From positions 1 through 64,000 of the forward strand of contig CALUPU010000005.1 in assembly GCA_944322725.1 (NCBI GenBank): a DNA stretch of 64,000 nucleotides. Reading direction: 5' to 3'. The translations under genes were made by a program, and so were the position numbers. Below are positions 5,801 to 28,551 of the stretch, one piece after another (positions within the stretch are counted from its first letter, which is position 1; each line of letters begins with the position of its first letter). The notes under the pieces are model-generated. The model was not told the DNA's origin and made no database searches. It was given only the letters and a program-made list of their open reading frames with translations. This stretch comes from Candidatus Gastranaerophilales bacterium. GTDB lineage: Bacteria > Cyanobacteriota > Vampirovibrionia > Gastranaerophilales > Gastranaerophilaceae.

Positions 5801-6104
5801 CACACAGGATCCTCTTAATGCTATTGAAATCATTCCGGGTATCAGAATTATCGGTAACCTTAAAAACGGATGGATGCCTTATCTGGGTGTTAATATGACT
5901 TGGAACATTATGGACAAAACCAAATTCTATGCGAACGAAGTTGCTCTTAGCCAGCTGTCTGTTAAACCTTATGTAGAATACGGTGTAGGTTTGCAAAAAC
6001 GCTACGGCGACAGATTTACCGGCTTTGGTCAGGCAATGCTTAGAAACGGCGGAAGAAACGGTATTGCGTTTACTCTCGGTTTCAGATGGGCACTCGGTCA
6101 TTAA
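2859..6104 (+). CDS. Pmp-like autotransporter with GGA(I/V)xN repeats and C-terminal beta-barrel
   Basis: A predicted surface autotransporter (type V secretion) of 1081 residues. A Sec signal peptide (Lys-rich N-region, then a hydrophobic core ending ASYA) spans residues 1-~27. The passenger to about residue 700 carries at least twelve GGA(V/I/F)xN/S motifs (GGAVQN, GGAVAN, GGAVFN, GGAIIN, GGAILN, GGAIYN and variants), the pattern of chlamydial polymorphic membrane proteins and of a right-handed beta-helix. The last ~280 residues are rich in alternating aromatic strands and end FRWALGH, as expected of an outer-membrane barrel, although the last residue is His rather than Phe. I chose ATG 2859 because it gives a proper signal peptide; an upstream in-frame TTG at 2763 does not. 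A likely adhesin; ligand unknown. Confidence 0.85.
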   Translation: MRNSKVKIIKKYAVIALAVLFLTTGASYAASTWSEAQNEINNTGSTTFTGDVNNVTDSPLMINRPPVPAGPVTIDGGGHTFTATGTPGSTTNYFINNGPGVDTTITDSHFEGANAGSVDAPVSGGAVQNSGNLTITTTPGSSSNTSFTNNTTEGNGGAVANTGSGTLNIERVDFSDNHSTGSGAQRGWGGAVYSEGTSAAITDSSFSSNTAQNGGGAVFNYAGKMTINGTSFIGNETTNDNSNGGAVVNAAEMEINGSHFENNYSQGVGGAFANAFNSGAEITTTISDTSFINNHSDTGGGAIINTGSATNQVHTLTINGGTIFDGNYVANEAGTTASYAGGAIINETATAGGADAVLNINGTQNNKVTFTNNVAETGGAILNGGSATISNTIFRQNGAKTIATGDLKTTAGGAIYNKTDGVGSAQMNISNTLFDSNTATDKGGAIYNEDGKIVITDSTFVNNSAGATSALPNGGAIYSAASATQGSETTLRATSGHSTVIGNENSVANGTDSIVFAGVAGATAAENKIAVGNFEAAAGGKIDIYSAVSGNTDASSNHLTEVNFNKSSDGNTYKGDVNFKGDASLSNTVANIYDGKVSFAHDRSFDATNILNMYGGTLNLLNGEYGAYQLQAREFNLKGDAGIMLDVDLAGTFSPDGKPGMDGIYKDNFGSITNDGGNTLFVEAMKSLTEAKTDTVKIQFTDADALIEHVQLGNNAGVIEAPINKYKVEQITQPVGGGTAADGTGPGEYFQFTKMGNSDSVLAGPVAAQAAFLLMDNLYRQSFANMDMVTLMTPEQRMAWKMRNKYANAGYHTGVYAPNVIPEERDGFYVRPFTNFENVPLKGGPKVSNVSYGTLIGGDSDLVDLGHGWDGNFSFFGAYHGSHQAYNGVSIWQNGGALGFVGTAYKGNFWTGVTANAGASAAEAHHTFGSEQFPIFMTGAAWKSGYNWGLLNNKLIIQPSYMMSYTFVNVFDYNNAAGVKITQDPLNAIEIIPGIRIIGNLKNGWMPYLGVNMTWNIMDKTKFYANEVALSQLSVKPYVEYGVGLQKRYGDRFTGFGQAMLRNGGRNGIAFTLGFRWALGH

Positions 6105-6140
6105 TAGTTAATAAAACTTAATAAATGTGGTAACCAATAA

Positions 6141-6177
6141 AGAAGGGCTTTTTCAGGATTGAAAAGCCCTCTTTTTT
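6141..6177 (+). terminator. Intrinsic terminator of the autotransporter gene
   Basis: AGGGCTTTT and AAAAGCCCT form a 9-bp stem with an 11-base loop, followed by CTTTTTT. It lies 36 bases after the autotransporter stop codon. Confidence 0.85.
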
Positions 6178-6290
6178 CATGTTTATCATGCTTTTGAGGC
6201 AATTTTTGAAAAGAAAAATTGTTTATTAATGCATAGAGGATTTTACAGAATTTTATTTAGACTATTAGAGGAATAAAGAGGGGATTTACT

Positions 6291-8153
6291 ATGACTATTA
6301 ATTCAACAGATGCAATCAAAGCTTCAAACTCAAATGTTTCAAAGTACGAAAAAGAAATTAGAGAAGAACAAGCTAAGAAAAGAGAAAAGGCAGAAAAGGA
6401 AAAAGTTGCCCGCGAATTAGTTGATAATTTGTCTCAATATACAGAAGCTAAAAGCGTTAAATCTGTACAAAAAGATTTAAAAGCAGCTTTAAAAGAACAA
6501 AAAGAACTTAAAATGATTTCTGAAGAAGAATATAAACAGGCAATGTCTTATGTAAAAAGTAAAGATTTCAAAGAATCTGTAAAAGAAGATATTACATCAG
6601 AATCGAGAACTTATATAGCAGGACTTGCAGGAAAATCTGAAGCTGTTAAAGCTAAAGATATGCAAAAAGAAGTTAAAGCTGAATTAAAAGAACAGTATAA
6701 AAATGGAGAAATTACAGAAGAACAATACAAGCAATACAAACAATATGCGACAAGAACAAACGGCTTTAAAAGATTTTTTGGCAAACAGGAAAATGAAGCT
6801 AATAAATTATACAGAGGCAACGCTGCAGACAATAATGTTGATAAAGTTAGAGCAGAAGGTCCTAAATTTAGCGATGAAATGCAGGCCAAAATAAATGTTG
6901 CAGGCTATACAGTTGATGAATTATATGAAATTTATGAAAATAACGGCGGCGCAGCTGATGGTACAGTAAACTACAGCTGGAAGAAAAAACAGCCCGGTGA
7001 AAGAGATGAAATTCTTACAAAACTAAATGAAAACAAAGGCGGATATAAATTTGACATGAAAGATGTCAAAGAAATCGGTAAAGCACTGGGTTATACTGTT
7101 GAAAAGAAAGTAGACGGCGGTAAAGTTGTCAGAGATGCTGCAAGAGGTCTTTTAATCGGCGCACCCGGTGTAGTTGGAATAGATAATACCGCTACAGCAG
7201 TTGCAGGTAGTGCAACAGCAACTTCTGTACAAAAAGTAGTTCTTCCGATTGGTGCAGCAGTTGGTTTAACTACAGGTGCAGTTGCATCTTCTATTACACA
7301 GGCACACAGAGTCGAAGACAGAGCTATTCCGACAAATGTTCCTGCAAGTGTAAAAACATACGATGAATATGCTAAATATCTGGATGACAATTATGCAACA
7401 GAAAAAGGTGCAGGAATCGGTAAAGATATTGCTAAATTCTATATAGACAAACGTGACGGCAAAACATTACTATTAGATCAAATGAATAAAGATTTGGCTC
7501 AGGCTGCAGGTACAGTTGATGCAGTTGGTACACCTTTGAACTATGAAGAAGCACTCGGACTTTTGAGCGACCTTTCATCAGGCAAAAAGGTTGTTGAACA
7601 GCCTAAAGCGGAGACACCTGAAAAAGAAACATGCGTGATAGAAGTTGTTTCAAAACCTGTACGGGAAAAAGTTGTAACTCCTACAGACTGTTATGAAGTT
7701 CAAAAAGGTGATGACTGGTACAGAGTTGTAATGGGCAAATACAAACCTAAATCTGCAGCAGATGCTAAAGCTCTTGTAAGATACTTAAAAGATGCTTACT
7801 ACGAAGAAAACAAAGAAGAATTGAATAAACTCGGTATCAAATCATCTAAGGGTGCATTCTTCCCGAAAGTCGGTGCAGAGTTATGTGTTCCTTCTGAAAT
7901 TACAATTAACGGTACTAAATACGAATATGATACAACCGCTAAAGTAATAGCAGGAAATAGATTCGGTGATACTGTATCTTACAATGCAATGGCAAATCCT
8001 TTCTATAATATAGTAGATAAAACAAAATATAATGTATCAACTTGTGATGGAACAGTTGCTAAAGGTATTGAAGAAAACCAGGTACAGCCAACAATTGATA
8101 ACATTAAAAAAGATAACTCTAAAAACTGGGAAATTGTCGGCTGGGGTAAATAA
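6291..8153 (+). CDS. Hypothetical protein with SHOCT-like helical repeats and a LysM-like C-terminal region
   Basis: A 620-residue protein. Residues ~10-160 are Lys/Glu-rich helix and contain two copies of a unit ending ISEEEYKQ / ITEEQYKQ, which resembles the short SHOCT helical hairpin. A hydrophobic Gly/Ala/Val stretch at ~285-345 could insert in or cross a membrane. Near residue ~464 the segment YEVQKGDDWYRVV, followed later by PKVGAELCVP, has the start and end signatures of a LysM peptidoglycan-binding domain, with an inserted helical stretch between them. There is no classical signal peptide. ATG 6291 follows AGAGGGGA. Envelope association is inferred from the LysM-like part only. Confidence 0.6.
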   Translation: MTINSTDAIKASNSNVSKYEKEIREEQAKKREKAEKEKVARELVDNLSQYTEAKSVKSVQKDLKAALKEQKELKMISEEEYKQAMSYVKSKDFKESVKEDITSESRTYIAGLAGKSEAVKAKDMQKEVKAELKEQYKNGEITEEQYKQYKQYATRTNGFKRFFGKQENEANKLYRGNAADNNVDKVRAEGPKFSDEMQAKINVAGYTVDELYEIYENNGGAADGTVNYSWKKKQPGERDEILTKLNENKGGYKFDMKDVKEIGKALGYTVEKKVDGGKVVRDAARGLLIGAPGVVGIDNTATAVAGSATATSVQKVVLPIGAAVGLTTGAVASSITQAHRVEDRAIPTNVPASVKTYDEYAKYLDDNYATEKGAGIGKDIAKFYIDKRDGKTLLLDQMNKDLAQAAGTVDAVGTPLNYEEALGLLSDLSSGKKVVEQPKAETPEKETCVIEVVSKPVREKVVTPTDCYEVQKGDDWYRVVMGKYKPKSAADAKALVRYLKDAYYEENKEELNKLGIKSSKGAFFPKVGAELCVPSEITINGTKYEYDTTAKVIAGNRFGDTVSYNAMANPFYNIVDKTKYNVSTCDGTVAKGIEENQVQPTIDNIKKDNSKNWEIVGWGK

Positions 8154-8173
8154 AACCTTAAGCAAGATAATAA

Positions 8174-8209
8174 AAAAAGACCTCAGGTTTTACTACCTGA
8201 GGTCTTTTT
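8174..8209. terminator. Bidirectional intrinsic terminator
   Basis: A near-perfect hairpin, AAAAAGACCTCAGGT with ACCTGAGGTCTTTTT, lies between two convergent genes (stops at 8153 and 8221). The T tract on each strand suits termination from both sides. Confidence 0.9.
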
Positions 8210-8220
8210 ATTTTTAATAT

Positions 8221-10371
8221 TTATGCATTGTATGTATCTCTTGCTGCTGAATTTCTGATCATATCTATTGCATCATAGAAATTGATATCATAAACAGGTT
8301 GATTGTGCATATATGCAGTAGGTGATTCAGGTGTAGTATTTTCAACAAGCTGATTTACAAGTTCTATTAACGCTTTTACCTGACTTTCGGTAGGCGCTTT
8401 CAAACCTTTTATTGCATCAACAATTTGTCCGAGAAGGTTTTCCATGTTTGCAGTATCAATAGAACCGCCGCCTGTAGAGCCGAAGTTTTTATTCTTGATT
8501 ACAGTAGTTAATGTTTCAATCAAACCGTTAGTTTTATCAAGGTTCGGCTGAGTTTTGATGAAGTAGTTTTGTAAATCATCTCCTGTAATTACATTACCCA
8601 GTCTGTTATATATATCATTTAAGATATCTGAGTAATCCGGCATGTTGTATTTAGCAAGGACTTCTTCCAGTTCTGCTTTTGTCAAACCGCCAGTGCCGCC
8701 TTCTTTATCAACAATAGCCTGCAGAAGTGCAATCTGTTCGGTTCTTTGTTGTGAAGCCTGTGCAACTGCTTCTCTAAAGCTGTCAGCATAAGTTTCCATA
8801 GCAGCTTGACTGTCTTTTTGACCGTTTATGACTTCAGTCATTTTATCAATCATCTGATTACCGAATAACTCTGCTTGAGAAGCAAATTTATCAATTTTTC
8901 CGCTGATTTCGTTTGCTGTGTTTCCTAGCGCTTCAACGCCGCCTTTGATGCCTGCAAGTTCATCGAGAATCTGCAGATATGCTTCCATTTTTTCTTCGTG
9001 GTTAGCATTGTTATCATTTTTGATACCTTCAAGCAGAGCAAAAAGTTTTTCTCTTTCTTCAGGGGTTAATGAGCCATTATTGAGGTTGAGGTTTTTAACA
9101 ACAGTTGTTAATGTTTCGATTAAGCCGTTAGTTTTTGTCAAATCAGTTTTGTTAGCTTCTATAATTGCAGTTAACTCGTCGCCTGTAATTTGATTTTTGC
9201 CGATTGCCTGAATTTCTTCAACAAGCTGGTTGTACATTGGTCCAAGCAACTCTTGTAATTCATCTATAGTAAAGAGTTTATCGTTTGCAATCTGTAACTG
9301 AGCAATGATTTGGTCAGATTTGTCGAGTTGTTGAACAAGTAATTTGTTGCTTTCTTCTTGATTTTTAATCACTTGATTCATTTTTCCGTCAATTGAACCG
9401 ACACCTGTCAGAATTTGAGTTAACAAGTCAATTGTTTGATTTTGTTTTTCTTCACCTTGTGTAATCAATGTATTCAACTGATTTGAAATTTCAGGAAGAA
9501 TATCGAGTTTTGAATCAATGCTGCCTAACAATTTGATGATTTCATCGAGTTTTGCTGAATCAGCAGAGCCGCCGTTCATGATTGCATCGATTTTTTCACG
9601 GATATCAACAGATATTTGACCGTTATCTTTGATTGCTTGGTATATGAGGTTCATCATTGTAGTATGTTCTTTATCGTTATTTTTGAACTCACCCATATCA
9701 TTCTGGTAATCACTGTACCATTTAAGAATCAAGTCTTGCAGTTCTTTGTCGTGTTGTCCTGCTGCTTCTCCTAATCTTACTAGGTTCATAAGCCATTGAT
9801 TTTGTTCTGTATTAAGAGCAATCAACTGGTCAAGTTTTTCTGAGTCAGAACCCTGACCATTAATAATTACATCAAGTTTGTTCATAAATTCCTGGTCATT
9901 CTGATTACTTTCTATCATAAGAGACTCAAGCCTGCCTAAAGCAGTATTAATATCAATAACACCACTGTTAATTTGTGTTAATAAAGAAATTATTTCACTA
10001 TTTTGCGCAGACATCTGTTCAATCAAAGCTTTGATTTCTTTGTTTGAAGTATCCAGACTTTGCAAATATTTAATAAGCTGACTGTTTTGTTCAACTACCT
10101 GTGTCAAAAGTTTTTTAATGTCTTCTAATTCTTTGTTATCAGCTATTGCCGTTGCTTCGTTTTGAATGCAGCTTTGCATTGTTGCTGCACCGCCCAGTGC
10201 TATTGTTGCAGCAAGGTAATGAGCGAGAGCTTTGCCTCTGATTTTTTCAAGCATTGTTCTTTGCTGTTCATCCATCTGTGTTCTGTCTTGAGGGATTTGC
10301 AACTCTTTTTCCGGCTTTTTGTCATCAGCTTTTTTTGAGTTAAAGTAATTTTTGATACCATTAATGTCCAT
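8221..10371 (-). CDS. Long coiled-coil protein with N-terminal membrane anchor and internal duplication
   Basis: A 716-residue, Gln/Asn/Leu/Ile-rich protein of unknown family. Residues 1-~48 are polar, then a short hydrophobic segment (~50-65) ends in MQSC, a poor lipobox. The remainder is nearly continuous heptad-type sequence, suggesting a long rod. Two ~40-residue segments are clearly duplicated: one starts ITGDEL and the other ITGDDL, and both contain KTNGLIETLTTV. The start at 10371 has AAAAGGAG at good spacing. Tail-fibre, tape-measure or adhesin-stalk roles come to mind, but no phage or secretion genes are nearby, so this stays a hypothetical, probably surface-tethered rod protein. Confidence 0.6.
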   Translation of the reverse strand: MDINGIKNYFNSKKADDKKPEKELQIPQDRTQMDEQQRTMLEKIRGKALAHYLAATIALGGAATMQSCIQNEATAIADNKELEDIKKLLTQVVEQNSQLIKYLQSLDTSNKEIKALIEQMSAQNSEIISLLTQINSGVIDINTALGRLESLMIESNQNDQEFMNKLDVIINGQGSDSEKLDQLIALNTEQNQWLMNLVRLGEAAGQHDKELQDLILKWYSDYQNDMGEFKNNDKEHTTMMNLIYQAIKDNGQISVDIREKIDAIMNGGSADSAKLDEIIKLLGSIDSKLDILPEISNQLNTLITQGEEKQNQTIDLLTQILTGVGSIDGKMNQVIKNQEESNKLLVQQLDKSDQIIAQLQIANDKLFTIDELQELLGPMYNQLVEEIQAIGKNQITGDELTAIIEANKTDLTKTNGLIETLTTVVKNLNLNNGSLTPEEREKLFALLEGIKNDNNANHEEKMEAYLQILDELAGIKGGVEALGNTANEISGKIDKFASQAELFGNQMIDKMTEVINGQKDSQAAMETYADSFREAVAQASQQRTEQIALLQAIVDKEGGTGGLTKAELEEVLAKYNMPDYSDILNDIYNRLGNVITGDDLQNYFIKTQPNLDKTNGLIETLTTVIKNKNFGSTGGGSIDTANMENLLGQIVDAIKGLKAPTESQVKALIELVNQLVENTTPESPTAYMHNQPVYDINFYDAIDMIRNSAARDTYNA

Positions 10372-10642
10372 TTATATTTGCTCCTTTTCCGGTAATTTGT
10401 ACTTTTAGCAATTTTATAAATCCTGTAAAGAGAAAAAGTTGCGCATGAATTTGCAAAACTTAAAGAAATCTTTACAATTGGGATAGTTAATATACCATAA
10501 AATCAATATCTTCGCTATTTGTATTAATGTTAAGAAATATTAAAGAAGAAGTTTCCTTTCACATTAAATTATATACCCTGTTAAAACTTTTTTTAAACAA
10601 TTATTTAAATTATAATTAATACATATAAGAATGGAGTATTAT

Positions 10643-11416
10643 ATGAAAGTTGTAATTTTAGCAGGCGGACTGGGTACAAGATTGAGCGAGGAGACTGAAC
10701 TTAAGCCCAAACCAATGGTCGAAATAGGCGGTTATCCCATACTCTGGCATATTATGAAGCTGTATTCTCATTACGGCTTTAATGATTTTGTTATATTAAC
10801 AGGTTACAAATCTCATGTAATAAAGGAGTATTTTGTAAATTATTATAACAGATACTCAGATATTACAGTTGATATGAACAGTAATACAGTAGAAATTCAT
10901 AAAACAAGAAACGAGCCGTGGCGTGTGACTATGCTCTATACAGGACAAGATACTCAGACGGGCGGACGAATCAAGCGTGCGCAGAATTATATAGGCAACG
11001 AGCCGTTTTTGTTGACTTACGGTGACGGAGTTTCTGACGTAAATATAGACGAACTTATAAAATGTCATAAATCATCGGGAAAAGTTGCAACAATGACTGC
11101 AGTTCAGCTTTCCGGCAGATTCGGTGCACTGGTGATAAAAGATGATAATATGATTACCTCTTTTATGGAAAAACCAAGAGGTGAGGAGTCGTGGATAAAC
11201 GGCGGGTTCTTTGTATGTGAGAGCAAAATCTTTGATTATATAAAAGATGATGATTCTGTTATATTTGAACGTGAACCTCTTGAAACTCTTGCTATGGATA
11301 ACCAGCTTAATGCATATAAGCATGAAGGATTTTGGAAACCAATGGATAATCTCAGAGACAAGAACGAACTGTGTAAACTCTGGTATGAGCAAAAAGCACC
11401 TTGGAAGGTATGGTAA
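10643..11416 (+). CDS. rfbF: Glucose-1-phosphate cytidylyltransferase
   Basis: Makes CDP-glucose from CTP and glucose-1-phosphate, the first step of CDP-3,6-dideoxyhexose synthesis. The sequence begins MKVVILAGGLGTRLSEET, the nucleotidyltransferase signature, and continues with KPKPMVEIGGYPILWHIMK and later GDGVSDV and W-x-N-G-G-F-F motifs. From ATG 10643 it is 257 residues, the family's usual length. That ATG has GGAG six bases upstream, whereas an in-frame ATG at 10631 has none. It starts a three-gene operon: its stop TAA overlaps the next ATG (TAATG). Confidence 0.95.
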   Translation: MKVVILAGGLGTRLSEETELKPKPMVEIGGYPILWHIMKLYSHYGFNDFVILTGYKSHVIKEYFVNYYNRYSDITVDMNSNTVEIHKTRNEPWRVTMLYTGQDTQTGGRIKRAQNYIGNEPFLLTYGDGVSDVNIDELIKCHKSSGKVATMTAVQLSGRFGALVIKDDNMITSFMEKPRGEESWINGGFFVCESKIFDYIKDDDSVIFEREPLETLAMDNQLNAYKHEGFWKPMDNLRDKNELCKLWYEQKAPWKVW

Positions 11417-12498
11417 TGTTTAGTTTCTACAAAGATAAAAAAATATTGATAACAGGTCATACCGGTTTTAAAGGCACATGGCTGGCATTGTGGCTGCATA
11501 CACTCGGCGCAGATGTTACAGGATATGCTCTTGAACCTGATACAGAACCTTGTCTTTTCACTGCAATTGGGCTTGATTCAAAAATAAACAGTGTTTTTGG
11601 AAATATTCTTGATAATGTAAAACTTGAAAAGGTTTTTAATGACTTTCAGCCTGAAATTGTCTTTCACCTTGCTGCACAGCCTCTTGTCAGGCGTTCTTAT
11701 GATGAGCCTGTTTTGACATATCAGACTAATGTTGTCGGTACGCTCAATGTGCTTGAAGCAGCAAGAAAATGCGAAAGCGTAAAGGCTTTTGTTAATGTCA
11801 CTACAGACAAATGCTATGAGAACAAAGAGTCTGATTACGCTTATAAAGAAACAGATGTGCTGGGCGGTTATGACATGTACTCTTCATCCAAAGCATGCAG
11901 CGAGATTTTGAGTGCATCGTACAGAAACAGTTTTCTCAATGGTCAACAGGGCGGGTACAATCTCGCGACAGCAAGAGCAGGGAACGTAATAGGCGGAGGT
12001 GACTGGGCACCAGACAGGCTTGTGCCTGACTGTATAAAAAGCCTTGTCAGAGATGAAAATATAGAATTAAGAAACCCTGTGTCCATACGCCCGTGGCAGC
12101 ATGTTCTTGAACCTCTGTCAGGATATTTGATGCTTGGTGAGAAGCTGTTTGGCAGCTGTGAATATGCGTGTGGAATTAATTTCGGACCGCATCCCGAGAA
12201 TGTTTACAAGGTTTCTTATGTTGCACAAAAGATTATTGATTTGTGGGGCAGCGGTGCGCTTAAGACAGTGAAAAACAACGATTCAATGCACGAAGCAAAG
12301 ATTTTGACACTTGATATAAATAAGGCAAAATCTTTGCTGGGATGGGAGCCTGTTTATACAATTGATGAAGCAATAGAAAAAACTGTTGAATGGTACAAGA
12401 ATTTTTATCAAAATAGTAATATGTATGATTTGAGTATTGCTCAAATTAAAGAGTATGAAAGAAAACTGAATGGAAAAACTGCTTCGAAGCCTTGTTAA
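11416..12498 (+). CDS. rfbG: CDP-glucose 4,6-dehydratase
   Basis: Converts CDP-glucose to CDP-4-keto-6-deoxyglucose, with NAD bound in an extended-SDR fold. A Rossmann TGHTGFKGTWL motif near residue 12, the S-S-K-A catalytic-type region (YSSSKACSE) and an RAGNVIGGGDW motif are all visible. Length is 360 residues, normal for the family. The start ATG overlaps the rfbF stop and has GGAAGG upstream, so I reject the in-frame TTG at 11401. The 3' end overlaps rfbH by 29 bases, which implies translational coupling. Confidence 0.94.
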   Translation: MFSFYKDKKILITGHTGFKGTWLALWLHTLGADVTGYALEPDTEPCLFTAIGLDSKINSVFGNILDNVKLEKVFNDFQPEIVFHLAAQPLVRRSYDEPVLTYQTNVVGTLNVLEAARKCESVKAFVNVTTDKCYENKESDYAYKETDVLGGYDMYSSSKACSEILSASYRNSFLNGQQGGYNLATARAGNVIGGGDWAPDRLVPDCIKSLVRDENIELRNPVSIRPWQHVLEPLSGYLMLGEKLFGSCEYACGINFGPHPENVYKVSYVAQKIIDLWGSGALKTVKNNDSMHEAKILTLDINKAKSLLGWEPVYTIDEAIEKTVEWYKNFYQNSNMYDLSIAQIKEYERKLNGKTASKPC

Positions 12499-13825
12499 AG
12501 CAAGCGCAAGACTTTATTATAACTGCACTCAGCGCTCTAATAAAAGAGACTATATACCAGCCTCGGGCAAGGTTCTGGGTGTTGAAGAACTGGATAATAT
12601 GATAGATGCAACCCTTGATATGTGGCTTACATCAGGGCGTTTTAATGATGAGTTTGAAAAAGAGTTTTCAAAGTATCTCGGGGTGAAATATGTCTCAACG
12701 GTAAATTCCGGTTCGAGTGCAAATCTTCTTGCAATTTCTGCTCTTATGTCCCCAAAACTCGGAAAGAAACGCTTGAAAAAGGGGGATGAGGTTATTACAA
12801 CTGCTGCGGGATTTCCTACAACTGTCAATCCGATTGTACAAAACGGCTTAATACCTGTATTTGTTGACTGTGAGACAAAAACTTATAATCTTGATATTTC
12901 AAAAATTGAAGAAGCAATTACTCCGAAAACAAAAGCCATTATTGCTGCTCACACTCTCGGGCACCCTTTTGATATTGTCAAAGCTGAAGAAATAGCGGAC
13001 AGGCATGGCTTGTGGCTTATAGAGGACAGTTGTGATGCTCTGGGTGCAGAGGTGAACGGCAAAAAAACAGGTACAATCGGGCATATCGGTACTTTTAGCT
13101 TTTATCCCGCCCATCACATTACAATGGGAGAAGGCGGTGCTGTTGTTACAAATGACCCTGTACTTCACAAGATAATTCTTTCTATGAGAGACTGGGGCAG
13201 AGACTGTTTTTGCAAGCCCGGTAAGGATGATACCTGTAAAAATCGCTTTAATATGCAGCTTGGCAATCTGCCTTTTGGGTATGACCACAAATATACCTAT
13301 TCTCATGTCGGATATAATCTCAAAATCACTGATTGGCAGGCTGCCTGCGCTCTTGCCCAGCTTAAAAAACTGCCTTATTTTCTTAAAAAAAGGCAGGAAA
13401 ATGCTCAATATCTGACTCAAAAACTTGCCGGACTTGAGGATTTTCTTTTGCTGCCGTATGTTAGTACAGGTATAAAGTCGGGCTGGTTTGGATATCTTAT
13501 TTCTGTTAAGGAAAATGCTCCTTTTACAAAGCAGCAGCTTGTGGAATATCTTGAAAATAACGGGGTGGGAACAAGGCAGCTGTTTGCAGGCAACATTCTG
13601 CGCCAGCCTATGTTTAGCGAGAGCGAGATACCTCTTAGGATATGCAGCTCTGATATTTTATATTCAAATCAGTTAAATGAAGAGCATTATAAAATGCTTC
13701 CTCAAACGGAATTTGTAATGAATAACACATTCTGGGTCGGAGTTTTTCCTGCTTTAGGTCAAAAAGAGTTGGATAAAACTGCTGATACAATCAGAGAATT
13801 TATTGAACTTACTTCACTGCAATAA
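12470..13825 (+). CDS. rfbH: CDP-6-deoxy-4-keto-glucose 3-dehydrase (E1)
   Basis: Pyridoxamine-phosphate and [2Fe-2S] enzyme that removes the C3 hydroxyl to give the 3,6-dideoxyhexose intermediate. Length is 451 residues. Where related aminotransferases have the PLP lysine it has His (SFYPAHHITMGEGGA), the E1 hallmark. Cysteines in DSCDA and in RDCFCKPGKDDTC match the cluster-binding set. It normally needs a ferredoxin-type reductase E3 (rfbI/ascD), which is not in this window. Its 3' end overlaps ridA on the other strand by 17 bases. The final sugar cannot be named from these three genes. Confidence 0.93.
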   Translation: MEKLLRSLVKASARLYYNCTQRSNKRDYIPASGKVLGVEELDNMIDATLDMWLTSGRFNDEFEKEFSKYLGVKYVSTVNSGSSANLLAISALMSPKLGKKRLKKGDEVITTAAGFPTTVNPIVQNGLIPVFVDCETKTYNLDISKIEEAITPKTKAIIAAHTLGHPFDIVKAEEIADRHGLWLIEDSCDALGAEVNGKKTGTIGHIGTFSFYPAHHITMGEGGAVVTNDPVLHKIILSMRDWGRDCFCKPGKDDTCKNRFNMQLGNLPFGYDHKYTYSHVGYNLKITDWQAACALAQLKKLPYFLKKRQENAQYLTQKLAGLEDFLLLPYVSTGIKSGWFGYLISVKENAPFTKQQLVEYLENNGVGTRQLFAGNILRQPMFSESEIPLRICSSDILYSNQLNEEHYKMLPQTEFVMNNTFWVGVFPALGQKELDKTADTIREFIELTSLQ

Positions 13826-21531: not shown

Positions 21532-22140
21532 TTATTTCTTTTTTTCATAGTTTGTGTTTATTGCCTCCAGCCCGCCAAGACGTGCTTTTGCTTCTACTGA
21601 GGCAGGAAGTATGTTTATTGCGTTGCTATAATGTTTGCGTGCTTTTTTTATATCATCTAATTTTTCGTAGCAAATACCGAGTTGGAGATTCGTTTTGTAA
21701 TCATACCTGTATCCGTGACTATATGCCCAGCTGTAAAAGTCTATTGCTTCCATATAGTCTCCGTCTTGAAAGAAAGCTTCTCCAAGATAAAAGCTTACTT
21801 TCGGGTTAACTTCATTAAAGTTGAGAGCTACCATAAGGTCATTTTTTGCATCTCTGATTCTATCCTGATACAGAGCGACTCTTGCTCTGCCAATAAGAGC
21901 GTTAGCGTTTGAAATATCCACTCTTGAAGCCTGATAATAATAGTATTTTGCTGCATTCAGATATCTCTGTCCGTTTGATTTGTCCTGCAGTCTTTCGTAA
22001 TAATCCAGTATTTTATCGCCTTTAACGCAGTATTCATTGGCACTTGACTGCAATGGTGTTTCTCTTGCATTTACACTTGCACATTTCAAACAGGTAAAAA
22101 ATGCAGTAATCATTATAAAAGTCAGTATTATTTTTTTCAT
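21532..22140 (-). CDS. Exported TPR repeat protein
   Basis: A 202-residue protein with a signal peptide (MKKIILTFIMITAFFTCL, with a Cys near residue 20 that could be lipidated). Four to five tetratricopeptide repeats follow, with the W/L/G/Y/A/P pattern (for example ALIGRARVALYQ, SFYLGEAFFQDGDYMEAIDFYSWA). TPRs mediate protein-protein contacts, so a periplasmic scaffold is the reasonable reading. It is divergent from nuoJ across a ~100-bp promoter region. Confidence 0.75.
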   Translation of the reverse strand: MKKIILTFIMITAFFTCLKCASVNARETPLQSSANEYCVKGDKILDYYERLQDKSNGQRYLNAAKYYYYQASRVDISNANALIGRARVALYQDRIRDAKNDLMVALNFNEVNPKVSFYLGEAFFQDGDYMEAIDFYSWAYSHGYRYDYKTNLQLGICYEKLDDIKKARKHYSNAINILPASVEAKARLGGLEAINTNYEKKK

Positions 22141-22237: not shown

Positions 22238-22759
22238 GTGGAGTCTGACGTAGTTTATTTTTATACATTATTTTTTATGATTTTGGGCTCGGCTTTCGGG
22301 GTAATATTTGCCCCTAAAATGTATCTTGCTTTGATTTCTTTGTTCGGTTTAATTTGTTTTTCAGGTTTTCTATATCTGGGGCTGAATGCACGGTATATGG
22401 CTGTTTTTCAATTTATACTCTGCGGAATTTTTTTGACGCTTTATATCTTGATATTGTTAAAGAAAATAGAACGTCTTAATTTAAAGTTAAAACTTGTAAG
22501 TCCTTTTAAAATAATTATTTCAAGCGGTCTTGTCTTTTCTTTCGGCGTAATGTACTGTTTGTTTTTTAATGAAGAGTTTGAAAATTCTCTTTATTCGATA
22601 TTCAATTTTGTCATTGAAAAATCTACTGATAAAATAAATTTTGCAATGCACATATTCCCTCTTCATATTGTTATATTGCTGGTAATTGTTACTGCCGTAA
22701 TATTGAGGATATTTTTGGAACAGCAGACTGTTGTACAGCATAACGAGGAGCAAAAATAA
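22238..22759 (+). CDS. nuoJ: NADH-quinone oxidoreductase subunit J-like protein (divergent)
   Basis: A 173-residue membrane protein with about five hydrophobic helices. Position and partial similarity identify it as NuoJ: the segment LGLNARYMAVFQFILCGIFL lines up with the conserved LLxAEFLA-x-xQVLVYVGA helix of Complex I. The normally conserved Y-V-G-A helix, a flexible element of the proton path, reads L-C-G-I here, and the acidic residue before it is replaced. The start is GTG 22238 with AAGAGG eight bases upstream. The stop overlaps the nuoK ATG (TAATG). No nuoA-I genes are present in the window. Confidence 0.75.
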   Translation: MESDVVYFYTLFFMILGSAFGVIFAPKMYLALISLFGLICFSGFLYLGLNARYMAVFQFILCGIFLTLYILILLKKIERLNLKLKLVSPFKIIISSGLVFSFGVMYCLFFNEEFENSLYSIFNFVIEKSTDKINFAMHIFPLHIVILLVIVTAVILRIFLEQQTVVQHNEEQK

Positions 22760-23082
22760 TGGATGTAATTTTTAATATAGGAATGCTTCATTATCTTGTT
22801 TTGTCACTTTTGCTTTTTATGACAGGATTGTTGGGTGTTTTGATTTCAAGGAATATGCTGCGTACTGTTATGTCTGTATTTTTGATGACAATATCAGTTG
22901 TCATTAATTTTCTTACTTTCGGCTGTTATTGTGACAGGTCGCTGGAAAATGCAAATACAATGTGCGTATTTATACTCATTATAGCTGTTGTGCAGGCTAT
23001 TATTGCTCTTGTTATTCTGTATAAAATATATCGTGCAAACGAGTATCTTGATGCTGAAAAAATCAAAGATAAGGAGAACTGA
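22759..23082 (+). CDS. nuoK: NADH-quinone oxidoreductase subunit K-like protein lacking both channel glutamates
   Basis: A 107-residue, three-helix NuoK/MnhC-type protein. The family signature (G-L-L-G-V-L-I-S-R-N-M-L) is clear at residues ~23-34. In functional NuoK two membrane-buried glutamates, E36 and E72 in E. coli, are required for proton transfer. The aligned residues here are Phe41 and Gln79 (codon CAG at 22993-22995). The length and reading frame are otherwise intact, so this is substitution, not decay by frameshift. It is coupled by overlap to both nuoJ and nuoL. Confidence 0.8.
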   Translation: MDVIFNIGMLHYLVLSLLLFMTGLLGVLISRNMLRTVMSVFLMTISVVINFLTFGCYCDRSLENANTMCVFILIIAVVQAIIALVILYKIYRANEYLDAEKIKDKEN

Positions 23083-24239
23083 TGGAGTTTTTTGTAGAAA
23101 ATATAAACCTTATTCTGTTTTTGCCGGTTATAATGTGCTTTATTATCGGGTTCAACGGATTAATTTCCAATAAAATTGACAAAATAACGCTTTTTGCCGT
23201 CAGTATTTCTTTCTCTTTTATTTCTCTGCTGTTTTGTGCAGCTGCTTTTGACTATTCTGTTGTTCAAAATCTTTCAGTATCCACAAATTTTAGGTGGTTG
23301 TCTTTTGACAGTATAAATTTTTATCTTGGAACTTTTCTTGATAAAACCTCTGTATCTTTTTTGCTCGGTTCGGGAATACTGTGTTTTCTTATACAGAACA
23401 TAGCATTTTTTAAATTCAGAGATGATATAAATTTCCCGAGGCTTTTGTTTTATTTGAACCTGTTTGCACTCGGATTGAACGGTATTTTTATCAGTTCAAA
23501 TATATTTCAGGCATATCTTTTCTGTGAGGTGGCGGGAGCTGCGAGTTATCTTTTGATAGACTTTGATTTTTCAAACAGAGCACAATCAAGAGCTGGTATA
23601 AAATCGTTTATTTTTAACAGAACAGGTGATTTAACACTTCTGTTCTGCGTACTGACAATAATGTATTATGCTGTCGTATACAATCAGCTATCGGATGTAA
23701 ATGCCCTTGCCTTTTCAAATATGGCAAATGTTGCCGCCAGTATAAATTCATTGATGAGCGAGCCTGTTTATATATTTTTCTGTTCTGTTTTGATTTTTGT
23801 TACGGTAATGAAATTCATGCAGGCGTTTATTTATATTACGTTTGAATCAAAACCTAAAGGCGGACTTGCGGAAGTTGTTCTTTATCAAAACAGCTTGCTG
23901 GCTCTTGCCGGTGTATATCTTTTCCTTAGATTCAATCCTTTCTTTTATGCTCTGGGCAGTCAGTGGATATGGACAGTGCTTGTGCTTGCACTTATATTTT
24001 TGGTTATTGGTGTAATTAACAGAATATTTATTCCTGTTTGTAAAATTTTCGGATGGATTGAAAAATACATTGTTGAAACCTTTATCAGTTTTGTAGAACT
24101 TGTTATAAGAGCATTGTCATACTTAAGCGGACGTCTGCAGGGAGGCAATTTTCAATCGTATTTGATTTATTCTGTTACCGGGCTTGTTCTGATTCTTGCC
24201 TTTGTTTTAATTTTTTATGAAATGCTTATAAAAGTATAG
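23082..24239 (+). CDS. nuoL: Internally shortened NuoL-like antiporter subunit
   Basis: A 385-residue membrane protein; NuoL is normally 600 or more residues. Residues 1-~185 align with NuoL, including FCEVAGAASYLLI (E149 at the E144 position) and SFIFNRTGD. Residues ~235-285 match the helix 7-8 region in degenerate form: K244 sits at the K229 position, but the HTWLPDAMEGP and ALIHAATM motifs are lost. The sequence then passes straight to a C-terminal part (LSGRLQGGNFQSY) like the end of NuoL. The helices that carry K342 and K399 are missing. No frameshift remnant is visible. The ATG overlaps the nuoK stop. Confidence 0.78.
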   Translation: MEFFVENINLILFLPVIMCFIIGFNGLISNKIDKITLFAVSISFSFISLLFCAAAFDYSVVQNLSVSTNFRWLSFDSINFYLGTFLDKTSVSFLLGSGILCFLIQNIAFFKFRDDINFPRLLFYLNLFALGLNGIFISSNIFQAYLFCEVAGAASYLLIDFDFSNRAQSRAGIKSFIFNRTGDLTLLFCVLTIMYYAVVYNQLSDVNALAFSNMANVAASINSLMSEPVYIFFCSVLIFVTVMKFMQAFIYITFESKPKGGLAEVVLYQNSLLALAGVYLFLRFNPFFYALGSQWIWTVLVLALIFLVIGVINRIFIPVCKIFGWIEKYIVETFISFVELVIRALSYLSGRLQGGNFQSYLIYSVTGLVLILAFVLIFYEMLIKV

Positions 24240-24257
24240 AAACTATTGGAGAAAATT

Positions 24258-25781
24258 ATGAATTTTTTATCTTTAATATGGCTGATATTTGCACCGATTG
24301 TGGTATCTTTAATCATAATGTTTCCGCGTTTTCCCAATCATCAGGTAAAAGTAAGACGTTTTGCAAAGTGGTTTGCCGGGCTGCATTTTATATATGCTCT
24401 TTTGTTTCTTGCTTTTTTTGATACGAGTATGTTCGGTATGTCATACGAGAAGGAACTTACCTTCTTTGGTATGTCATGGCTTAAGAGTCTGGGTATAAGC
24501 GCAAAGTTTGCGGTAGACGGTATTGCTCTTTTAATGGTGGTTTTGACTACATTTATTGTTCTTATAACTCTGTTTATGAGCAAAATTCATATCCGCTCAA
24601 AGCATAAACTTTATTATTCAATGGTGTTTTTGCTTGAGTCCGCAATATTAGGTATATTTTGCGCTAAAGATATGTTCTTGTTCTTTATTTTCTGGGAGTT
24701 GTCATTGATTCCTGTATATTTCCTTATTTCTCAATGGGGAAACTCCGAGGCAAGGCGTGCTGCCATTAAGTTTACGCTTGTGTCTTTTGCTGCAAATATG
24801 TTTTTGTTCTTCGGTATGCTGATATTGTATTATTATAATTTTGCAGTAAGTAATGTGCTTACGGCAAATATAGAATCATTGAACATGGATGAAAAAATCT
24901 ATCCCGTATGGTTTCAGGTAACGGTTTTTGTTAATTTCTTAATCGGTTTTCTAGTCAGAGTACCTTTTGTGCCGTTTCATAACTGGTATGCGGATGTTCA
25001 GAGCAAATCCGCAGCACCTGTGAATATAATGCTTTCGGGTGTGCTTTTAAATACCGGAGTATACGGGCTTATTCGCTTTAATATGCAGGTTTTTCCTGAG
25101 ATATTCAAGATGTTTGCTCCTGTATTAATGGTATGGGGCATTGCCAATATAATCTATGCGGGAGCTCTGTCTATTGTACAGCCCGGTATTAAAAAGATTG
25201 TGTCTTATGCGCATATTTCGTCTATGGGTTTTGTTATGACAGGACTTGCGTGTCTCAATTCTACGGGGTTTAACGGCGCTGTTTTTATGTCGATTGCCTG
25301 TGCCGTTGTATTCAGTGCTCTGTTTGTAATTATTTCAAGTGTTCAGTTTAGAACCAAAACAACTTATATTACTGCTTTGGGAGGTATAGGTCAGGTTATG
25401 CCCAAATGCATGTACTTTGCGCTTATTATATGTTTTAGCGCTATAGGTGTTCCTTTTTTGATGATGTTTACGCCTAAGCTTATGGTGCTGACCGGAGCAA
25501 TGCTGTCAAACCTTGAACAGCAGTTGATGGTAAAGGTTGCTGCTTTTATCGGGCTTGTCGCAATAGTTGTTTCTGCAGGATATATAATGTACTTTTTCTA
25601 TAAGGTCTTCTGCTCTGTGCTTCTTGAACAGTGGAAAAAAGTCAAAGACCTTTCACCGCAGGAAACTGCTGTTTTATCTGCTTTATGTTTGATAATAATT
25701 TATTTTGGAGTTTATCCGATGAGTATTATTCAAATTTATCAATCTGTTTCTAGTATAATTCTAGATGTAATACAGGTATAA
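24258..25781 (+). CDS. nuoM: NuoM-like antiporter subunit with altered channel residues
   Basis: A 507-residue polytopic membrane protein (about 14 helices) clearly of the NuoM family: FWELSLIPVYFLI, VPFVPFHNWYADV, QPGIKKIVSYAHISSMGF. With E. coli numbering the key residues are E147 (kept, = E144), R234 (K234), N265 (K265) and K407 (E407). The HxWLPDAHxEAP loop is also changed. ATG 24258 has GGAG six bases upstream; I reject the TTG at 24246 that the longer frame would use. Length is full. Proton translocation, if any, must use a modified path. Confidence 0.82.
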   Translation: MNFLSLIWLIFAPIVVSLIIMFPRFPNHQVKVRRFAKWFAGLHFIYALLFLAFFDTSMFGMSYEKELTFFGMSWLKSLGISAKFAVDGIALLMVVLTTFIVLITLFMSKIHIRSKHKLYYSMVFLLESAILGIFCAKDMFLFFIFWELSLIPVYFLISQWGNSEARRAAIKFTLVSFAANMFLFFGMLILYYYNFAVSNVLTANIESLNMDEKIYPVWFQVTVFVNFLIGFLVRVPFVPFHNWYADVQSKSAAPVNIMLSGVLLNTGVYGLIRFNMQVFPEIFKMFAPVLMVWGIANIIYAGALSIVQPGIKKIVSYAHISSMGFVMTGLACLNSTGFNGAVFMSIACAVVFSALFVIISSVQFRTKTTYITALGGIGQVMPKCMYFALIICFSAIGVPFLMMFTPKLMVLTGAMLSNLEQQLMVKVAAFIGLVAIVVSAGYIMYFFYKVFCSVLLEQWKKVKDLSPQETAVLSALCLIIIYFGVYPMSIIQIYQSVSSIILDVIQV

Positions 25782-25803
25782 AATTGATGCCGGAGAGAAG
25801 CGG

Positions 25804-27240
25804 ATGTCTGAAATAGTTGCGGCTTATCTGCCAGAGTTTATAATAATTTTATTTATAATATTTAATTTGACAGCCTCGTTGTTTTTTAGCACATACCTGT
25901 ATAAACTGTCAAAGTGGGTCACTCTGCTCGGAATAGTGCTTGCTATGGCATCGACTCTGTATTTACAGCCTGAAACGTATGCATTCAACAACACTTTTCT
26001 TTCAAATTTTTATACACTGTTTTTCAAAATACTTATATTGATGGGCGGCTTTTTTCTTACTCTGCTGTCGCGAAATATGATAAGAGAAAAGAGAGACAGG
26101 GCGTTTGAGTATTTTAGTGTATTTCTTTCGGGAATTTTGTTTGCAATGTGTGCGCTCAGCGCGGTTGACTTTGTTGGACTGTTTGTTTCGCTGGAAGCAC
26201 TTGGCTTAAGCTGTTATCTTCTTCTTTCATTGAATAAAAATCCTAATGCAAAACAGCTCACCTTCGGCTATCTTGTTCAGGGGGCTGTTGTTTCTGCACT
26301 GTTTTTGACAGGTTTGTCTTTAATATACGGAATGTGTGCTCAATTTGACTTTGAACAAATAGGGCTTTTCCTTGTAAACTCCATGCATTCAGGCTCGCAG
26401 CCTCAGGTGCTTTTGACATTTTCATTGATATTAATGATTTGTACTTTTTTGTTTAAACTCGGTCTGGCTCCGTTTTCAAGCTGGCTTCCGGATACTTTTG
26501 AAGGTGCAAGTTATCCTATAGGTGCATATATGTCCACTATACCAGTCCTGGCTTGCTTTGGAATTTTGTCCAGAATCCTTATGATATTTTTGAATTATAC
26601 CTTTACAATGAAAATAGTTCTTGCTTTTGTTGCTGTTATTACAATCATTTTTGGCTCTCTATCTGCAATAAGACAGGAAAACTTAAAAAGGCTTATGGCT
26701 TATTCCATGAGTGTACAGTCTGGAATAATGCTTCTGGGACTGTGTGTCTTTACGACATATAGTCTTTCAAGTGTTTTGTTTTACCTGTTCTGTTATTTGT
26801 TTGCCAATATAGGTGCTTGGTCAGCGATAATTCTTTTATACAATTCTGCAAAGCTTGAAAAACTTGAGGATTTAAAAGGTATAATTTATCACAGACCTTA
26901 TTATGTAATAGCTTTTACAGTTGTATTGATAGCGCTTGCAGGGCTTGCTCCGACATGCGGATTTGTAGCTAAGCTGTATATTTTTTCAGCGGTTGCCCGT
27001 TCCGGTTTCATTTTCCTGCCGTTTCTTATTATTGCAATGCTTGGGTGCGTAATAATGATTTATGCATACTGGCGTATAATAAGAGCAATGTTCAGACGTA
27101 TAGAAACAGATATTGAAATTGATACGCACGTGATTTCATCAAAATTTATTTTGTATGGCTGTGCGTTATCAACTGTTGCAATCTGTCTTATTGCAGATAG
27201 GTTAATCCAGTTCTGTCAGCTGGTTGCTTATTATATGTGA
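25804..27240 (+). CDS. nuoN: NuoN-like antiporter subunit
   Basis: A 478-residue, ~14-helix protein of the NuoN family and the most conventional of the five. E131 is in FVSLEALGL, K218 is in FLFKLGLAPF (= K217) and K390 is in GFVAKLYIF (= K395). The third channel lysine, K247, is replaced by Val248 in the STIPVLACF segment. GGAGAGAAG precedes the ATG. It ends the nuoJKLMN operon: its stop codon directly abuts that of a convergent hypothetical gene, with no terminator between. Confidence 0.85.
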   Translation: MSEIVAAYLPEFIIILFIIFNLTASLFFSTYLYKLSKWVTLLGIVLAMASTLYLQPETYAFNNTFLSNFYTLFFKILILMGGFFLTLLSRNMIREKRDRAFEYFSVFLSGILFAMCALSAVDFVGLFVSLEALGLSCYLLLSLNKNPNAKQLTFGYLVQGAVVSALFLTGLSLIYGMCAQFDFEQIGLFLVNSMHSGSQPQVLLTFSLILMICTFLFKLGLAPFSSWLPDTFEGASYPIGAYMSTIPVLACFGILSRILMIFLNYTFTMKIVLAFVAVITIIFGSLSAIRQENLKRLMAYSMSVQSGIMLLGLCVFTTYSLSSVLFYLFCYLFANIGAWSAIILLYNSAKLEKLEDLKGIIYHRPYYVIAFTVVLIALAGLAPTCGFVAKLYIFSAVARSGFIFLPFLIIAMLGCVIMIYAYWRIIRAMFRRIETDIEIDTHVISSKFILYGCALSTVAICLIADRLIQFCQLVAYYM

Positions 27241-27942
27241 TTACTGGTAAAACTCTTTAAAAATCGGAGGATAGTCATATTCAATACCTCTGTATAACTC
27301 CCATGGATAGCGTTTCATACCAGCCACATATCCTCTATTTTTATCTATAAATTTTTGAGTTGCTGCGTTGTATTCAAGACCTTCACGTTCAAATAAGAAT
27401 TTAGGCATAAGTCTTATATGTTCTTTTAATTTTGGAACTACTTCTGCTATATATTGTTCAGGAGTTTCTCCTTTTTGCGGAGAAAAATATTTTCCTGTGC
27501 AGGCTCTTGCTCGTCTTAATCCGGTACGAATAAGAACTTCATCTTTGTTTTTCAAACCTTGAATTACTTGAGGTTCCACAAACTCGGGTAATAATTTGTC
27601 ATTTAAAATATCGTTTACAAACTTTTTTTCGTCAAATATTGTAACGTCAAACTTTAAACCTGTAGGTCTTGTGTTTCGGAATATATCCCAAAAGGACATT
27701 GGTTTTGTGACTCCGGATATTTCAATATTGAGATTATCGTCAAATTTTTCCAAAACCGGTTTAATCTTTTCAACAAGTTGTTTTAACGGAGATTCTGTTA
27801 AATTAACGAAGCTATCTGAAATTATATCGCGTTGTTGGGAAATATTTACCCTTGCTTCAAAGGAAGGTTGTGAATGTTTTTGTTTTTTTGTTTGATAATT
27901 TAAATTATTGACTGATTTTACTTTCATATTTATATTTCTCAT
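27241..27942 (-). CDS. Hypothetical protein, possible tandem relative of 27949-28551
   Basis: A 233-residue soluble protein with no signal peptide or membrane helix. A disordered N-terminus ends in the motif PSFEA, then a mixed alpha/beta region contains IKPVLEKFDDNLNIEI and LKFDVTIFDEKKF. No family recognised. The start is ambiguous: ATG 27942 has AAGGA directly touching it, and ATG 27927 has a distant one. It follows the upstream gene by six bases, so the two form an operon, and the general layout of the two proteins is similar. Confidence 0.6.
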   Translation of the reverse strand: MRNINMKVKSVNNLNYQTKKQKHSQPSFEARVNISQQRDIISDSFVNLTESPLKQLVEKIKPVLEKFDDNLNIEISGVTKPMSFWDIFRNTRPTGLKFDVTIFDEKKFVNDILNDKLLPEFVEPQVIQGLKNKDEVLIRTGLRRARACTGKYFSPQKGETPEQYIAEVVPKLKEHIRLMPKFLFEREGLEYNAATQKFIDKNRGYVAGMKRYPWELYRGIEYDYPPIFKEFYQ

Positions 27943-27948
27943 TCCTTG

Positions 27949-28551
27949 TTATACAGCAGGATTACCATACACGTAACTGGAGGCAACAGTGCTTTTTTTC
28001 TTGAATTCTTCCGGTGGATTTTCCAGGTAAGCCTTTTTGATAATAGAATTTATGTCGTTTTCTTCTGCAAATTTTAGTAATTTTTCCGTTGATTTTTGTT
28101 CTCCAAGTTTTGCAAATTCAAAATCAAGTGCATGAATTCTTGGATATCCGTATAAAAATTCGTCATAGTTTACATCAAAATTTCTTTTACCGGATTTAAA
28201 ATCATTAATTAAAAATTCAGGAAATTGGAATATTTTATCGTTATTTTCTACAATGTAGTTTTTTAACTTAGGTATTCTGTCAGCAGTGTGCCCTGTTAAT
28301 TTCACTTGGATGTATCTGAAATAATCACCGTATACATAAAACATAGAATCAAAAAATTTACCGAATTTTTCTTCTAATACAGGCACAACCTTATCAATCA
28401 TTCTTATAATACCCGGACCGTCTTCATACAGTTTTTGTATTTCTGGTCTTGTTAGCTCCATATAATTAACATGTTTGAAAGAAACATTTTTTTCGGTATG
28501 TGATGGTGTTCCCTTTTGTACGGGATGAATAGATACAGTATTAACTCTCAT
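27949..28551 (-). CDS. Hypothetical protein, first gene of a two-gene operon
   Basis: A 200-residue soluble protein of no known family. A polar N-terminus contains NVSFKH, resembling the PSFEA spot of its neighbour. This is followed by VVPVLEEKFGKFFDSM, a short strand region, and a Lys/Asp-rich second half. AAAGGAT precedes the ATG at 28551. The shared N-terminal F motif and 'P-V-L-E-x-x-F' helix in both proteins suggest an old duplication, but identity is low. Confidence 0.6.
   Translation of the reverse strand: MRVNTVSIHPVQKGTPSHTEKNVSFKHVNYMELTRPEIQKLYEDGPGIIRMIDKVVPVLEEKFGKFFDSMFYVYGDYFRYIQVKLTGHTADRIPKLKNYIVENNDKIFQFPEFLINDFKSGKRNFDVNYDEFLYGYPRIHALDFEFAKLGEQKSTEKLLKFAEENDINSIIKKAYLENPPEEFKKKSTVASSYVYGNPAV

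What the first reader, a model, noticed from the sequence alone, without database searches (positions are those of the whole stretch)
22238..27240. Five-gene nuoJKLMN operon with channel residues lost across several subunits
The operon is intact and tightly coupled, yet residues essential in known Complex I are changed in several genes at once: NuoM R234, N265 and K407; NuoK F41 and Q79; NuoN V248; and a NuoL without its central helices. NuoJ also has a changed helix. Intact frames over 5 kb argue against random decay. This looks like a Complex I membrane arm repurposed for something other than standard proton pumping. No nuoA-I, hydrophilic arm or NuoH is in the window.
Basis: partly seen in the sequence, partly recalled or inferred. 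Interest (0 to 1): 0.88.

Follow-up and report, generated by a model that had tools for sequence, protein, structure and literature searches.

The report
Complex I membrane arm, redox arm lost
A group of gut bacteria has deleted the electron-handling half of respiratory Complex I but keeps, under strong selection, the membrane half with its proton route cut in the same places in every species, so a normally redox-driven pump is being kept for some other, still unknown, job.

Summary
The window carries an intact nuoJKLMN operon (22238-27240) whose substitutions are real: NuoM K234R, K265N, E407K; NuoK E36F, E72Q; NuoN K247V; and a 385-aa NuoL lacking TM9-15. They are neither an assembly error nor decay. 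Thirty Gastranaerophilales species in three genera share the short NuoL and this pattern, and dN/dS is 0-0.16 (NuoM and NuoN at most 0.05). No NuoA, complex I-type NuoD or NuoH exists in the genome. The operon is the ancestral 11-gene NDH-1 locus with ABCDHI missing; relatives show the steps ABCDHIJKLMN, AHJKLMN, JKLMN with full NuoL, JKLMN with half NuoL. Parsimony needs three independent losses of the redox arm. The charges kept are those at the N/M and M/L subunit interfaces (coupling points). The charges lost are every TM8 Lys/His relay, the NuoK glutamates and NuoL's exit half. It therefore cannot be a redox-driven pump of the known kind. What it does instead is not shown; redox-independent ion movement or electrostatic coupling centred on NuoM/NuoN is most likely (about 0.4). 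A nuoJKLMN-only set was reported in Gilliamella (PMC11325843) and dismissed as a remnant; here it is demonstrably selected and recurrent.

The parts
22238..22759 (+). nuoJ-like, 173 aa, fast evolving; Ec Tyr59 position is Cys62; conserved Lys76 gained in the short clade
   Evidence: ORF; synteny and homology; residues
22759..23082 (+). nuoK, 107 aa; the two E-channel glutamates replaced (F41 = Ec E36, Q79 = Ec E72)
   Evidence: Pfam Oxidored_q2; residues; solved-structure matches
23082..24239 (+). short nuoL, 385 aa: TM1-8 (E149/K244 pair kept, TM8 His to Gln269), TM9-15 absent, partial lateral helix and last TM helix kept
   Evidence: alignment to full-length NuoL of relatives; A1/A2; AlphaFold2 and Foldseek
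24246..25781 (+). nuoM (ATG at 24258, 507 aa); TM5 Glu kept, TM7 K to R, TM8 K to N, TM12 E to K; the slowest evolving subunit
25804..27240 (+). nuoN, 478 aa; TM5 Glu131, TM7 Lys218, TM12 Lys390 kept; TM8 K to V248; Ec E154 to Q, K158 to G
21532..22140 (-). divergently transcribed TPR protein, conserved neighbour of both full and reduced operons; marks the locus, but is not restricted to genomes that have nuo genes

Best explanation
The operon encodes a stand-alone, redox-free membrane complex (J, K, half-L, M, N). It arose stepwise from an ordinary 11-subunit NDH-1: first the Q module B, C, D, I was deleted (leaving AHJKLMN), then A and H, and NuoL lost its distal half. SHOWN: the genes, the same-locus excision, the clade-wide conservation, purifying selection, and loss of every residue that known models use to carry protons across the membrane or to sense quinone (NuoK Glu36/72, the TM8 Lys/His of L, M and N, and NuoL TM9-15 with the only proposed periplasmic exit), while the inter-subunit coupling points are invariant (N-K395 with M-E144/R234; M-K407 with L-E144/K229). 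INFERRED: losing the relays sealed the orphan arm against proton leak, and the surviving interface charge switches, now with a Mrp-like Lys instead of the complex I Glu in NuoM TM12, support a redox-independent activity centred on NuoM/NuoN. The most likely form is slow secondary ion movement or electrostatic coupling driven by the membrane potential that the cell's F-type ATPase maintains. It is Mrp-like in principle but lacks Mrp's cation site.
For: Same-locus excision: TPR gene then A-N in G032, G036, G045, G084, G100; TPR gene then J-N in the short clade; intermediates AHJKLMN in G037, G103, G129, G029, G097, G131 and JKLMN with full NuoL in G044. NuoA in 0 of 23 congeners; NuoD-, NuoH- and NuoB-type genes in only 6 of 23, at Ehr-level scores. 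Short clade monophyletic, SH-aLRT 100; parsimony needs 3 losses of the peripheral arm. Residue states in 30 species. dN/dS: J .06-.16, K .05-.11, L .04-.10, M .01-.05, N 0-.05; control radA .02-.04. NuoM has 254 of 511 columns at 95% or more invariance across three genera, and NuoM is more conserved relative to the other subunits than in full complexes. Coupling-point geometry, NuoL-only exit and the Lys/Glu TM12 difference are from PMC7419157 and PMC10212512. The N E133/K217 pair, whose NuoK partner is gone, is the one drifting (27/30, 28/30), as this model predicts.
Against: No transport or expression data. All known trans-membrane proton routes are cut, so ion translocation would need a new path. 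The retained charges could be structural interface salt bridges. Mrp's cation ligands are absent. No partner or substrate gene was identified. Independent lineages do not keep one common residue set (G129 and G131 also lost NuoM E144; G029 and G097 lost NuoL E144 and NuoN K217).
Confidence: 0.45

Rival explanations
1. Sealed structural complex: the arm no longer moves ions. The TM8 and NuoK charges were removed to stop leak, and the rest is kept for a structural or organising role in the membrane (scaffold, assembly or anchoring of other complexes).
For: Convergent loss of NuoM TM8 Lys and of NuoK E36 in most redox-arm-less lineages; loss of NuoL's exit half; retained charges sit at subunit interfaces, where they could simply hold N, M and L together.
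Against: Buried Lys/Glu on broken helices are invariant in 30 of 30, which is costly for a pure scaffold; NuoM constraint is as strong as in full complexes or stronger; no known membrane-arm scaffold role.
Confidence: 0.25
2. Energising module for an unlinked, unidentified partner: the arm docks a non-Nuo protein in place of the peripheral arm (as the Pfam PF00361 protein does in DAB, or NdhD/NdhF with CupA) and couples membrane potential to that reaction.
For: Antiporter-like subunits are known to work with non-redox partners (DAB2 complex, PMC13144422, abstract seen); strong selection on M/N; the proximal K/J face is free.
Against: No conserved new gene in or next to the operon: the only constant neighbour is a TPR gene, and it also occurs in genomes without any nuo. 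The Ehr complex is present in only 6 of 23 congeners. Subunits J and K, the docking face, are the least conserved.
Confidence: 0.18
3. Slowly decaying remnant of genome reduction, as proposed for nuoJKLMN in Gilliamella.
For: Many relatives have lost the operon entirely (122 of 191 family genomes lack NuoN at E 1e-20); the same interpretation is published for Orbaceae.
Against: dN/dS 0-0.16; intact frames in 30 species across three genera; clade-specific invariant residues gained, not just lost.
Confidence: 0.1
4. Assembly or binning artefact, or a split operon with the missing subunits elsewhere.
For: The genomes are drafts, most of them MAGs.
Against: The operon is contiguous in every genome of the short clade; no NuoA, D, H or B in congeners 99% complete such as G001, G002, G012, G016, G019.
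Confidence: 0.02

Closest known systems
Respiratory complex I / cyanobacterial-type NDH-1 (11-subunit Nuo of Melainabacteria)
   Same: Gene order J-K-L-M-N, locus, homology and vertical descent; closest solved relatives are cyanobacterial and chloroplast NDH-1 subunits
   Different: No peripheral arm, no NuoA/NuoH, no E-channel glutamates, no TM8 Lys/His, NuoL lacks TM9-15
Mrp (CPA3) multisubunit cation/proton antiporter
   Same: Membrane-only complex of NuoL/M-N/K/J-like subunits; GluTM5-LysTM7 pairs and LysTM12 coupling points, with Lys in NuoM TM12 as in MrpD
   Different: No full MrpA, no MrpB/E/F/G, no MrpC histidines or MrpA E706 equivalent, TM8 lysines absent
nuoJKLMN-only set of Gilliamella and other Orbaceae (PMC11325843)
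   Same: Exactly the same five genes kept without the catalytic subunits, also in gut bacteria
   Different: Unrelated lineage; reported as a remnant without residue or selection analysis; its sequences could not be fetched here
DAB / CUP complexes (antiporter-like subunit plus non-redox partner)
   Same: PF00361 subunit used without, or in a side role to, complex I redox chemistry
   Different: No DabA/Cup-like partner next to the operon; five subunits kept rather than one
Ehr (energy-converting hydrogenase-related) six-gene cluster, L006 6190-13474 in the same genome
   Same: NuoL/N/H/D/B-like subunits; already noted in Melainabacteria (PMC3787301)
   Different: Separate locus and family, present in only 6 of 23 congeners; not a source of the missing subunits

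Membership tests
Complex I / NDH-1 | Q module NuoB, C, D, I with Fe-S clusters and quinone site | tested here: not met
   No complex I-type NuoD in the genome and none in 23 congeners; NuoB family only as Ehr small subunit; NuoC and NuoI absent from the operon, not searched genome-wide
Complex I / NDH-1 | NuoH and NuoA | tested here: not met
Complex I / NDH-1 | Homologous J, K, L, M, N in operon order at the ancestral locus | tested here: met
Complex I / NDH-1 | Full-length NuoL with both half-channels | tested here: not met
   TM9-15 absent in 30 of 30
Complex I / NDH-1 | E-channel glutamates NuoK E36/E72 and TM8 Lys/His relays | tested here: not met
   lost 30 of 30
Complex I / NDH-1 | NADH/ferredoxin:quinone oxidoreductase activity with proton pumping | not testable with these tools
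   needs biochemistry
Mrp (CPA3) antiporter | GluTM5-LysTM7 pair and LysTM12 coupling points | tested here: met
   L E144/K229, M E144/R234 and K or R407, N K395 all 30/30; N E133 27/30, K217 28/30
Mrp (CPA3) antiporter | MrpC His pair and MrpA-C Glu706 cation site | tested here: not met
   K F/L/C at Ec36 and Q at Ec72; J C/F/S/G at Ec Y59; reference positions
Mrp (CPA3) antiporter | MrpB/E/F/G genes in the operon | tested here: not met
   operon is five genes only
Mrp (CPA3) antiporter | Cation/proton exchange activity | not testable with these tools
   needs vesicle assay
Ehr / group 4 hydrogenase | HyfG/HyfI-like large and small subunits in the operon | tested here: not met
   only at another locus
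DAB / CUP type | DabA or Cup partner adjacent | tested here: not met
   neighbours are TPR, AAA/R3H and two proteins without Pfam hits
Orphan nuoJKLMN set (as in Gilliamella) | J, K, L, M, N kept, other nuo genes absent | tested here: met
   literature

The most novel reading that the evidence does not exclude
A new class of redox-free, complex I-derived membrane complex that evolved at least three times in Gastranaerophilales (and possibly again in Orbaceae). It moves an ion or couples membrane potential to a non-redox reaction through inter-subunit charge switches, without the TM8 relays that complex I and Mrp use.
Probability: 0.4. Interest if true: 0.85.

Novelty: new variant of a known kind. 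Interest (0 to 1): 0.68.

Why it matters
Complex I models disagree about what each antiporter-like subunit does and where protons cross. Here evolution has separated the parts: redox arm and E-channel removed, TM8 relays cut, half of NuoL deleted, coupling points kept, in a graded series of living relatives. That makes 'what can the membrane arm do without redox chemistry?' directly testable, and shows that published 'remnant' nuoJKLMN sets may be functional.

Tried and rejected
Partner by neighbourhood: the divergent TPR gene is constant beside the operon, but it also occurs at good scores (about 130-190 bits) in genomes with no nuo (G038, G043, G031, G027), so it is a neighbour, not an obligate partner. 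Ehr as the missing redox arm: rejected, in 6 of 23 congeners only. Missing genes elsewhere or assembly gap: rejected. Pseudogenes: rejected. Horizontal origin from Mrp: rejected, since closest relatives are NDH-1 and the locus is syntenic. Promoter scan not clearly above chance (27 against 21.4, sd 4.5); repeats uninformative. In one search NuoK of G001 was mis-picked in the wrong frame (its K value is void); corrected.
Full report
OBSERVATION. The window (contig C5 of a 1.91 Mb draft genome, 95.6% complete) carries five co-directional, nearly overlapping genes at 22238-27240. NuoM and NuoN match their families strongly, NuoK clearly, and NuoL only over the first ~310 positions of full-length models; NuoJ is too divergent for Pfam's threshold but is placed by synteny. 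The closest solved chains are cyanobacterial or chloroplast NDH-1 subunits, as expected for vertical descent in this sister lineage of Cyanobacteria. Matching contigs with names are labelled mostly 'Candidatus Gastranaerophilales bacterium' MAGs.

GENOME CONTEXT. The only other complex I-like genes found in the genome lie on contig C2 (L006 6190-13474): HyfB/C/E/F-like membrane subunits, a large subunit whose NiFe-binding cysteine motifs are absent by inspection, and a small subunit with a ferredoxin domain. This fits the six-subunit 'hydrogenase lacking hydrogen-binding motifs' described for Melainabacteria, alongside an 11-subunit complex I (PMC3787301). It occurs in 6 of 23 congeners. The other 17 have no NuoD-, NuoH- or NuoB-family gene at all, and none of the 23 has NuoA. 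Several of these genomes are estimated 99% complete.

SAME LOCUS, GRADED REDUCTION. Gene maps show a divergent TPR gene followed by A-B-C-D-H-I-J-K-L-M-N in relatives with complex I (for example G032, G036, G045, G084, G100). In all 23 congeners, and in genera g19 and g57, the same TPR gene is followed directly by J-K-L-M-N with a ~385-aa NuoL. Intermediates exist: A-H-J-K-L-M-N without B, C, D, I in G037, G103, G129, G029, G097 and G131, and J-K-L(636 aa)-M-N in G044. In a NuoM+NuoN tree the short-NuoL clade has one origin (SH-aLRT 100) and joins the five AHJKLMN genomes G037, G103, G129, G029, G097 (SH-aLRT 93). G131 groups with full-complex G039 and G044 with full-complex G032/G036/G102. 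Parsimony needs three losses of the peripheral arm. Long branches, G029/G097 above all, make exact placement uncertain.

NOT DECAY. In the closest species pairs dN/dS is J .06-.16, K .05-.11, L .04-.10, M .01-.05, N 0-.05, against .02-.04 for radA. Across 30 species of three genera NuoM has 254 of 511 columns at 95% or more invariance, with many clade-specific conserved residues gained as well as lost. At equal NuoN divergence NuoM changes less than in full complexes (ratio 0.79 against 1.02, although only five full pairs were available).

WHICH RESIDUES WENT AND WHICH STAYED (30 short-clade species). Lost: NuoK E36 (F/L/C) and E72 (Q); TM8 relay in NuoL (H254Q, 30/30), NuoM (K265, 30/30), NuoN (K247 to V/P, 30/30); NuoM H348; NuoN E154 and K158; NuoL TM9-15. 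Kept: NuoL E144/K229 30/30; NuoM E144 30/30 with K234R 30/30; NuoM 407 as Lys or Arg 30/30 instead of Glu; NuoN K395 30/30; NuoN E133/K217 27-28/30. Published structures define a coupling point as GluTM5+LysTM7 of one antiporter-like subunit with LysTM12 of its neighbour. They place the connecting relay at TM8, put the only periplasmic exit in NuoL (a point still debated), and note that complex I differs from Mrp in having Glu rather than Lys in NuoM TM12 (PMC7419157, PMC10212512). Read on that map, both inter-subunit coupling points (N/M and M/L) are intact, while every intra-subunit relay, the quinone-side E-channel and the exit are gone. The only charge pair that varies is NuoN E133/K217, whose NuoK partner is gone. 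In the AHJKLMN genomes the NuoH quinone-loop acids (D213, E216, E218, E220) are mostly deleted or changed. G103 keeps NuoK E36/E72 and NuoM K265 and looks like an early stage.

STRUCTURE OF THE SHORT NuoL. The 24-27 sequence alignments are 385 columns long, so the short form has the same length everywhere. Residues 1-311 align with NuoL 1-~300 and 312-385 with the end of the lateral helix and the last TM helix of relatives' NuoL. AlphaFold2 (pLDDT 75.7, weak in the C-terminal part) gives the N-terminal TM bundle, a long helix 295-352 and a final helix; Foldseek's best matches are NuoL/NdhF chains. NuoL has thus kept the half that faces NuoM plus an anchor, and lost the distal half.

MECHANISM. 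Shown: descent, excision, conservation, selection and residue pattern. Inferred: loss of the relays seals an arm that would otherwise leak once uncoupled from redox chemistry, and what remains is a redox-independent complex centred on NuoM/NuoN interface charges. The genome has F-type ATP synthase genes whose c subunit lacks the usual Na+-site Ser/Thr after the Glu (signature from general knowledge), so a proton-based potential is probable. I put ion movement or electrostatic coupling first (about 0.4), a sealed structural complex second, an energising module for an unknown partner third, and a remnant last.

KNOWN OR NEW. The 11-subunit complex I and Ehr of Melainabacteria are published (PMC3787301, PMC6349859, PMC8235220). 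The last sets aside MAGs with fewer than seven complex I genes or with duplicated genes; the passages read do not describe their gene content. The literature searches found one nuoJKLMN-only report, in Gilliamella/Orbaceae, called a remnant of genome reduction (PMC11325843). I found no report of a selected, graded, recurrent loss of the peripheral arm or of the half-length NuoL; the library holds open-licence papers only, so an account elsewhere cannot be excluded.

Noticed in passing
L006 6190-13474 (contig C2): Ehr/Hyf-type six-gene cluster; large subunit without NiFe cysteine motifs, small subunit fused to a ferredoxin domain; a formate/nitrite-transporter-like gene lies nearby (L006 14216-15190).
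   Followed up: partly
window 21532-22140: Divergent TPR gene, with a probable signal peptide, conserved beside full and reduced nuo operons, yet present in relatives without nuo genes; function unknown.
   Followed up: yes
window 27241-28551 (minus strand): Two proteins (233 and 200 aa) without Pfam hits, next to nuoN in many congeners.
   Followed up: partly
L160 (G089), also G118: A very divergent but complete 11-gene nuo operon in G089, apparently with NuoM altered at key positions: possibly another modified complex. G118 is in the same genus.
   Followed up: no
L151 (G103) 5307-12654: AHJKLMN operon with canonical NuoK and largely canonical NuoM: an apparently recent loss of the peripheral arm.
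   Followed up: partly
L107 (G029), L153 (G097): AHJKLMN with extremely fast-evolving subunits, unlike the strongly conserved short clade.
   Followed up: no
   Followed up: no
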